Shown piece by piece: positions 60,228 through 61,255 of a stretch of 61,485 bases of DNA (position 1 is the stretch's first letter; every line of letters begins with the position of its first letter). This DNA is from Chlorobiota bacterium (lineage in GTDB: Bacteria > Bacteroidota > Bacteroidia > Flavobacteriales > Flavobacteriaceae): the NCBI GenBank assembly GCA_013153605.1, contig JAADED010000074.1, positions 1 through 61,485 on the forward strand. Direction: 5' to 3'. The notes under the pieces were generated by a model that saw only the letters and a list, made by a program, of their open reading frames with translations, ran no database searches and was not told where the DNA came from. The translations under genes and the position numbers were made by a program.

Positions 60228-60241
60228 ATGATAAATATCAT
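60228..60241. repeat. 14-bp palindrome at the island promoter
   Basis: ATGATA-AA-TATCAT, two 6-bp arms with a 2-nt centre, ending on the first T of the TTG -33 candidate. Position suits an operator. Confidence 0.5.
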
Positions 60242-60273
60242 TGACAAAAGATGGAGGGGGGGGGGTAAATTTG
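60241..60273 (+). promoter_or_regulatory. Putative promoter with a G10 homopolymer in its spacer
   Basis: TTG (60241-60243), 22-nt spacer containing ten G residues (60256-60265), then TAAATTTG (60266-60273), a consensus -7 element, 15 nt before the ATG at 60289. Change in G-tract length would change -33/-7 spacing. Confidence 0.6.
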
Positions 60274-60288
60274 TGAAAAAATAAAAAA

Positions 60289-60906
60289 ATGAAAACACCT
60301 AAATTATTATCCTTCATTTTTGTAATTGGAATAATTCTTTCTTTCTCATCTTGTAAACAAAAAGTATCTGATGATAGTTTTACTATCACTACTCAACCTT
60401 TAACAATGCAAGAGATTGAAGACATTGCCGCACAGTTATCAGCTCAAAACCGGACATTACAAACTCAAAACGAAGATTCGATTCGCCGAATCCTTTTACC
60501 TTTAATTGAAACCGGAAGGTCCTATTATAATGAAATATTAAGCCAAATTGATTTAAATGATCCTTCTTTGAATTTAACTCAAGAAGAGAGAGAGGCGATT
60601 CAAAATATGACTGAAGACCAATTAGGATTATTGGGTTTTGTATATAGTGTGAGTCATATTTGTAATGAAATCTCTAATAATAATGATGAGAATCGAACGA
60701 GTTACAGAGCTATAGATAAGAATACTATTTTAAATTGTTTAAGCGCTGCATTAGGAATAAGTGATATTATAGCAATTGTAGAAAATACGGCTGCTTTAGC
60801 TACAGTTGATGGGGCCATAGCTGTATTAAAATTAATTGGGAAAAGATATTTAGGGTACCTAGGGTTAGCGGTAGCTGTAGTTTCATTTGTAGAATGTGTA
60901 AGCTAA
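60289..60906 (+). CDS. AT-rich-island lipoprotein with hydrophobic Cys-bracketed C-terminus, unknown function
   Basis: 205 residues. It has a lipoprotein signal (FSSC, Cys22), a polar helical middle (QAEIE-type, Gln/Asn/Glu-rich), and from about residue 148 a hydrophobic Ala/Ile/Val/Gly segment (NCLSAALGISDIIAIVENTA ... GYLGLAVAVVSFVECV) bounded by Cys150 and Cys203. Cys125 lies before it. Such C-terminal segments resemble those of small membrane-active peptides, but I recognise no named family. Codons are strongly AT-biased compared with folP 70 nt away, pointing to lateral acquisition. Confidence 0.8.
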   Translation: MKTPKLLSFIFVIGIILSFSSCKQKVSDDSFTITTQPLTMQEIEDIAAQLSAQNRTLQTQNEDSIRRILLPLIETGRSYYNEILSQIDLNDPSLNLTQEEREAIQNMTEDQLGLLGFVYSVSHICNEISNNNDENRTSYRAIDKNTILNCLSAALGISDIIAIVENTAALATVDGAIAVLKLIGKRYLGYLGLAVAVVSFVECVS

Positions 60907-60919
60907 ATATATAAAAAAG

Positions 60920-61255
60920 ATGCAAACAACTTCGTTGGAAAATAAGAAAGTATCCGACATAAAAATAGGTATATTTCTTTCGAATTTTTTCTCTTTATTG
61001 TCATTTATCCTTTCAGGAATAGCATACCATGTTTACAAATATTTTGAATACTCTTTAGCACCAGTGGTATATGTATCTTTCTTTTCCGCATTGATAGCTT
61101 TAGTTATTTCCATTTTTTATTTATTAAAATGTAATTTCTATACCGAATTGTCTAAAAAAACACGTAAAAGATATAATCGAAAATTATGGTTTCGACTTAT
61201 ATCTGCTTCTTTTTTTCTTTATTACGCAATCTATGTTTATCATGCCATAACCTAA
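60920..61255 (+). CDS. Three-helix small membrane protein, unknown function
   Basis: 111 residues with three predicted membrane helices (about 17-40, 46-69, 90-111) and a basic cytoplasmic loop (SKKTRKRYNRK). It starts 13 nt after the lipoprotein stop, has the same AT-rich codon use and is likely co-transcribed. Size and topology match immunity or accessory membrane proteins, but no family was recognised. Confidence 0.75.
   Translation: MQTTSLENKKVSDIKIGIFLSNFFSLLSFILSGIAYHVYKYFEYSLAPVVYVSFFSALIALVISIFYLLKCNFYTELSKKTRKRYNRKLWFRLISASFFLYYAIYVYHAIT

What the first reader, a model, noticed from the sequence alone, without database searches (positions are those of the whole stretch)
60241..60273. 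Ten-G homopolymer inside a promoter spacer: possible phase-variable switch
TTG and TAAATTTG promoter elements are separated by 22 nt that include ten uninterrupted G residues, just 15 nt before the start of an AT-rich lipoprotein gene. In other bacteria G tracts between promoter boxes cause slipped-strand length changes that turn transcription up or down. Bacteroidota promoters prefer about 19-21 nt between these boxes, so gain or loss of one to three G could tune or silence the gene. A G10 in an otherwise AT-rich stretch is unlikely by chance.
Basis: partly seen in the sequence, partly recalled or inferred. Interest (0 to 1): 0.78.

Follow-up and report, generated by a model that had tools for sequence, protein, structure and literature searches.

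The report
Ten-G tract in lipoprotein promoter spacer
A run of ten G bases sits between the two recognition boxes of a promoter just before a surface-lipoprotein gene, where DNA-copying slips could turn the gene up or down; the same layout recurs before exported-protein genes in many Alistipes gut bacteria, which suggests a little-noticed kind of switch in Bacteroidota.

Summary
G10 lies at 60256-60265, 22 nt separate TTG from TAAATTTG, and the ATG of a lipoprotein gene follows 15 nt later. It is the longest G/C run found in the genome. Of 29 noncoding TTG-N17-24-TAnnTTTG sites in 1.08 Mb of this genome, 28 have no G run longer than 4. Their spacing peaks at 20 nt, so the assembled spacer is about 2 nt too long and G8 would be optimal.

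The lipoprotein has no full-length homologue in 8 congeners, 198 other family genomes, or plasmids. The promoter layout (-33 box, G8-G13, TAnnTTTG, exported gene) recurs elsewhere in Bacteroidota. In one Alistipes genus, G8-TAnnTTTG occurs 102 times in 180 genomes against 3 for the mirrored control. Four related Alistipes promoters with near-identical cores carry 8, 9, 10 and 11 G. The pattern is not enriched in family, class or phylum samples; it is lineage-specific.

Best reading: a porA-type slipped-strand promoter switch built on the Bacteroidota -33/-7 promoter. Length variation within the species and any effect on expression are untested. Phase variation reported for Bacteroidota in the papers I found was by DNA inversion; I found none of this type.

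The parts
60228..60241 (.). Dyad ATGATA-AA-TATCAT just upstream of and touching the -33 box; possible operator, function unknown
   Evidence: read in the sequence; forms the only stable hairpin of the region
60241..60243 (+). -33-like element TTG (preceded by A, so ATTG rather than TTTG)
60256..60265 (+). G10 tract inside the 22-nt spacer (60244-60265), directly abutting the -7 box
60266..60273 (+). -7 element TAAATTTG; fits TAHHTTTG. Predicted start of transcription 4-5 nt further, about 60278
   Evidence: consensus and start distance from PMC6847099; the start itself is inferred
60289..60906 (+). 205-aa lipoprotein gene (signal peptide and lipobox FSSC, Cys22)
   Evidence: motif rule; no family above cut-off in Pfam or NCBIfam
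60715..60903 (+). C-terminal domain with two Cys 54 residues apart, shared with other Bacteroidia lipoproteins
60920..61255 (+). 111-aa putative membrane protein, possibly co-transcribed
   Evidence: no family

Best explanation
The element is a candidate phase-variable promoter. The Bacteroidota primary-sigma promoter of a surface lipoprotein gene carries a G10 tract in its -33/-7 spacer. Slipped-strand mispairing during replication would add or remove G residues and so change the distance between the two boxes. Expression would be highest when the spacer is near the organism's usual 20 nt (G8) and lower at the assembled 22 nt (G10) or beyond, giving cells with graded or on/off lipoprotein expression. 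Shown: the anatomy, the rarity of the tract, the spacing optimum, the recurrence in other Bacteroidota, and tract-length differences between related Alistipes promoters. Inferred: slippage in this species and its effect on transcription.
For: Exact placement between the two boxes and 15 nt before a lipoprotein start codon. Own-genome spacing peak at 20 nt, all other spacers without G runs above 4. In a scan of 84,980 species, 24 of 28 scored Bacteroidota loci with G10 between TTTG and TAnnTTTG have an 18-23 nt spacer against 13 of 39 in other phyla, p = 2e-5. In an Alistipes genus G8-TAnnTTTG has 102 matches against 3 control matches, before exported genes in 22 of 26 cases against 11 of 32 for ordinary promoters. 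Tract length 8, 9, 10, 11 in four related Alistipes promoters with near-identical cores. G runs abutting the -7 box are 1-3 or 8-11, never 4-7. Known precedent: porA of Neisseria meningitidis.
Against: No length variation has been seen in this species; the collections hold one genome per species. The -33 box is ATTG, and the -33 motif is weak in F. johnsoniae, so spacing may matter less than assumed. No enrichment of the layout in the window's own family, in Bacteroidia or in the phylum. Six Alistipes promoters, five of them before M16 peptidase genes or their flank, all have G9. Read-through from folP may supply transcript anyway. The homopolymer count in an assembly may be off by one.
Confidence: 0.66

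Rival explanations
1. The G tract is a fixed promoter sub-element (a protein-binding or DNA-shape element in the spacer) rather than a length switch.
For: In Alistipes the commonest length is G9 with a 19-nt spacer, and six promoters from different species all keep G9. The -33 side is also conserved (TTTGGAAAATTC), so a regulator could read the whole module.
Against: Related promoters with the same core vary from G8 to G11. Tracts up to G13-G15 occur in similar positions elsewhere (L136, L052). The window's locus shares only the tract and the -7 box, not the TTTGGAAAATTC part.
Confidence: 0.16
2. The tract is a chance expansion in an AT-rich, possibly foreign islet, with no regulatory role.
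For: Dinucleotide shuffles do not make long G runs rare in this window. Only one such site exists in the genome and the layout is rare in the family. The islet is atypical in GC and absent next to folP in congeners.
Against: Long runs are avoided in this genome. The tract falls exactly inside a -33/-7 spacer before a lipoprotein start, a layout enriched in Alistipes and in Bacteroidota spacing statistics.
Confidence: 0.14
3. The tract acts in RNA: it lies in a 5' leader made from folP or another upstream promoter and affects translation or RNA structure.
For: No terminator-like site was found between folP and the tract, so read-through RNA would contain it.
Against: A start at the -7 box would leave the tract untranscribed. 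Bacteroidota lack Shine-Dalgarno sequences (PMC6847099), and the tract ends 23 nt before the ATG.
Confidence: 0.04

Closest known systems
Neisseria meningitidis porA promoter (poly-G between -35 and -10; PMC3639595)
   Same: Homopolymeric G tract of about 9-11 in a promoter spacer before an outer-membrane protein gene; length alters box spacing. 11G to 10G to 9G lowers surface PorA 2.2- and 13-fold.
   Different: Sigma-70 boxes with a 17-nt optimum there; here the Bacteroidota -33/-7 boxes with a 20-nt optimum, and no experimental proof.
Treponema pallidum tpr poly-G promoters (PMC7864442)
   Same: Poly-G tracts of 8 or more upstream of surface-protein genes, length affects expression.
   Different: Other phylum and promoter type; in tprL the tract position relative to the boxes differs and the effect was tested in E. 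coli.
Invertible promoters of Bacteroidota (for example Bacteroides fragilis capsule loci)
   Same: Phase variation of surface structures in the same phylum.
   Different: Those flip by a recombinase at inverted repeats; no strong inverted repeats bracket this promoter.
Bacteroidota primary-sigma (sigma-ABfr) promoters
   Same: TAnnTTTG -7 box and TTG -33-like box.
   Different: Normal spacers are AT-rich and in this genome free of long G runs.

Membership tests
porA-type slipped-strand promoter switch | Homopolymer of 8 or more between the two promoter boxes | tested here: met
   G10 at 60256-60265 between TTG and TAAATTTG
porA-type slipped-strand promoter switch | Spacer within a few nt of the organism's optimum, so that plus or minus 1-3 G matters | tested here: met
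   Own-genome optimum 20 nt, this spacer 22 nt
porA-type slipped-strand promoter switch | Controls a surface-exposed or exported protein | tested here: met
   Signal peptide and lipobox; surface exposure itself not tested
porA-type slipped-strand promoter switch | Tract length varies between cells or strains | not testable with these tools
   One genome per species held, no reads. Related Alistipes promoters vary from G8 to G11 between species
porA-type slipped-strand promoter switch | Expression depends on tract length | not testable with these tools
   Needs reporter or mRNA data
Bacteroidota primary-sigma promoter | -7 element TAnnTTTG (TAHHTTTG) | tested here: met
   TAAATTTG at 60266-60273 (consensus)
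Bacteroidota primary-sigma promoter | -33 element TTTG at about 19-21 nt | tested here: inconclusive
   ATTG, three of four bases, at 22 nt; the length would be 20 with G8
Invertible promoter | Inverted repeats bracketing the promoter | tested here: not met
   Only weak AT-rich pairs; the one that touches 60276-60307 starts downstream of the -7 box

The most novel reading that the evidence does not exclude
Some Bacteroidota lineages, above all Alistipes, carry a multi-gene repertoire of poly-G spacer promoters that switch lipoproteins, TonB-type receptors and exported peptidases by slipped-strand mispairing. This would be a simple-repeat contingency system in a phylum whose phase variation is known mainly as DNA inversion. 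The window's locus would be an isolated member in a Flavobacteriaceae-like genome.
Probability: 0.55. Interest if true: 0.78.

Novelty: new variant of a known kind. Interest (0 to 1): 0.64.

Why it matters
If true, gut Bacteroidota vary surface lipoproteins by promoter-spacer slippage as well as by DNA inversion. Surveys that look only for invertible DNA would miss these switches. The exact layout gives a simple genome-wide search (G8 or more abutting TAnnTTTG) and a direct test in existing deep metagenomes of Alistipes.

Tried and rejected
Homologues of the lipoprotein: none above cut-off in Pfam or NCBIfam, none in family or genus genomes, GTDB contigs and viral contigs (these scans find close relatives only) or plasmids; three weak phage hits at E 0.5 or worse were dismissed. 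A family-wide excess of G tracts before TAnnTTTG was expected and not found (about 17 tracts against about 13 control matches). Phylum and class samples also showed none. Promoter inversion rejected. A Shine-Dalgarno role of the GGAGG at the tract's start rejected (too far from the ATG; phylum lacks such sites). The sigma-70 scan is not relevant to this phylum. A same-species strain comparison could not be made, since the collections hold one genome per species. Literature searches found no report of poly-G spacer switching in Bacteroidota, but the library lacks most subscription papers, so this is not proof of novelty.

Full report
What is there. The sequence reads ...ATGATAAATATCATTGACAAAAGATGGAGGGGGGGGGGTAAATTTGTGAAAAAATAAAAAAATG... 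The G10 tract is 60256-60265. TTG (60241-60243) and TAAATTTG (60266-60273) are 22 nt apart and the ATG at 60289 follows 15 nt after the second box. The gene (60289-60906) encodes a 205-aa protein with a signal peptide and lipobox. A 111-aa putative membrane protein gene follows at 60920-61255. Both lie in an AT-rich islet (27-32% GC) between folP, a dihydropteroate synthase gene of 55.5% GC, and sequence of 62% GC.

Is it more than chance? It depends on the null. Dinucleotide shuffles of the window do not make a G8 rare. But this genome avoids long runs: in 1.08 Mb, G+C runs of 7/8/9/10 number 10/3/1/1, and tail extrapolation predicts 0.002-0.15 runs of 10 or more. Only one other G/C run of 9 or more exists in the whole assembly, a run of 9. 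Inside an islet with 15% G, a G10 has a chance of about 1e-5.

Does the organism use such promoters? Of noncoding TTG-N-TAnnTTTG sites in the sampled genome, spacing peaks sharply at 20 nt (19: 4, 20: 14, 21: 5), with about 2 per bin elsewhere; the one site at 22 is this locus. All other 28 spacers of 17-24 nt have G runs of 4 or less. Published F. johnsoniae data give the -7 consensus TAHHTTTG and a start 4-5 nt downstream, with a weak -33 motif (PMC6847099); B. thetaiotaomicron spacers are AT-rich (PMC7366714). A G10 spacer is thus the opposite of the norm. From the optimum, G8 would give the best spacer and G10 should be weaker (inference).

Is it one of a kind? The lipoprotein as a whole is an orphan. 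Only its last ~58 residues, a domain with two Cys 54 residues apart, match other Bacteroidia lipoproteins: an Alistipes protein (pairwise E 7e-7) and one in genome G695 (E 1.7e-8). The two-row model behind one search was built from the window protein and the Alistipes protein. The promoter layout, however, recurs. A scan of 84,980 species for TTTG-N{4,13}-G10-N{0,8}-TAnnTTTG gave 87 rows. Among those that could be scored, 24 of 28 Bacteroidota loci have an 18-23 nt spacer, against 13 of 39 from other phyla (p = 2e-5). Phyla were assigned by hand from record titles; Kapabacteria/Ignavibacteria and unnamed records were left out of that count, and a few of the 28 come from one genome, so they are not fully independent.

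The strongest recurrence is in the genus of several MAGs named Alistipes: GGGGGGGGTANNTTTG has 102 matches in 67 of 180 genomes, against 3 for the same pattern read backwards. The consensus is aaaTTTGGAAAattcgtG(8-11)TAAATTTG with spacers of mostly 18-21. Downstream genes are lipoproteins, TonB-type receptors, M16 peptidases and other exported proteins: 22 of 26 by a simple motif rule, against 11 of 32 for ordinary promoters of one genome of the genus (p = 2e-4). In 400 kb of that genome, 28 of 29 promoter-like spacers have G runs of 4 or less and one has G8, before a lipoprotein. Over 592 kb the G run that abuts the -7 box is 1-3 or 8-11 and never 4-7, though part of that sequence was fetched because of its tracts.

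Does the tract change length? Not testable in the window's own species. In Alistipes, L158, L168, L200 and L191 share an upstream gene end and the core TTTGGAAAATTC[GA]T-Gn-TAAATTTGTAGGCA, with n = 11, 10, 9 and 8. Two exported-protein promoters of other Bacteroidia, L105 and L136, have G10 and G13. Against this, six promoters, five of them tied to M16-peptidase genes by flank similarity or ORF, all have G9. These comparisons are between species, so they show evolutionary lability, not switching.

How widespread? Not general. In the window's own family (397 genomes) the looser pattern has about 17 tracts against about 13 control matches. In a phylum sample made up mostly of other classes, and in a class sample, it is also near control. 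Within the family several hits do sit right before exported genes: L049 (SusC-like), L052 (G15 before an outer-membrane protein), L054/L062 (paralogous lipoprotein genes), L060. So the trait is lineage-specific or scattered.

Mechanism. By analogy with porA, where going from 11G to 10G to 9G lowers surface expression 2.2- and 13-fold (PMC3639595), slippage in the tract would alter the box spacing and thus transcription. The inversion mechanism usual for Bacteroidota has no support here. Rivals are a fixed spacer element, a chance tract, and an RNA-level role; each is weighed in its field.

Verdict. Observation confirmed; interpretation plausible and strengthened by comparative evidence, but the defining test, length variation within the species coupled to expression, could not be run.

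Noticed in passing
L029 (congener G001, contig 152), tract at 1181-1190: A lipoprotein gene of a congener holds a C10 tract right after its lipobox (SSCSKTPPP...). At the assembled length the start is out of frame with the rest of the gene, so it is a candidate translational contingency locus.
   Followed up: partly
L001 1501-1509 (own genome contig 8, 3189-3197): The genome's only other G/C run of 9 lies in the intergenic region upstream of a gene for an exported surface-type protein, but with no -7 box beside it.
   Followed up: partly
L093, L104/L218, L119, L223: Kapabacteria and Ignavibacteria have G10-G12 spacers (22 nt) before small peptides with a KLRLDEL/DI..ESFVT-like leader, which look like modified-peptide precursors.
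   Followed up: no
L156, L192, L198, L199, L202, L243: One lipoprotein family (...YTVSSAGGEMIIPV..TGIDNV...) repeatedly sits behind a G8-G10 spacer promoter in different Alistipes species.
   Followed up: no
window 60715-60903: The two-Cys C-terminal domain links otherwise unlike Bacteroidia lipoproteins and was not found in Pfam.
   Followed up: partly
L042 (congener G007, contig 49, 8164-8180): A G17 tract in an intergenic region of a congener, with no -7 box beside it.
   Followed up: no
L080, interrupted tract: An Alistipes promoter has GGGGAGGG in place of the pure tract (TTTGGAAATTTGATGGGGAGGGTAAATTTG), perhaps a decayed or locked copy.
   Followed up: no
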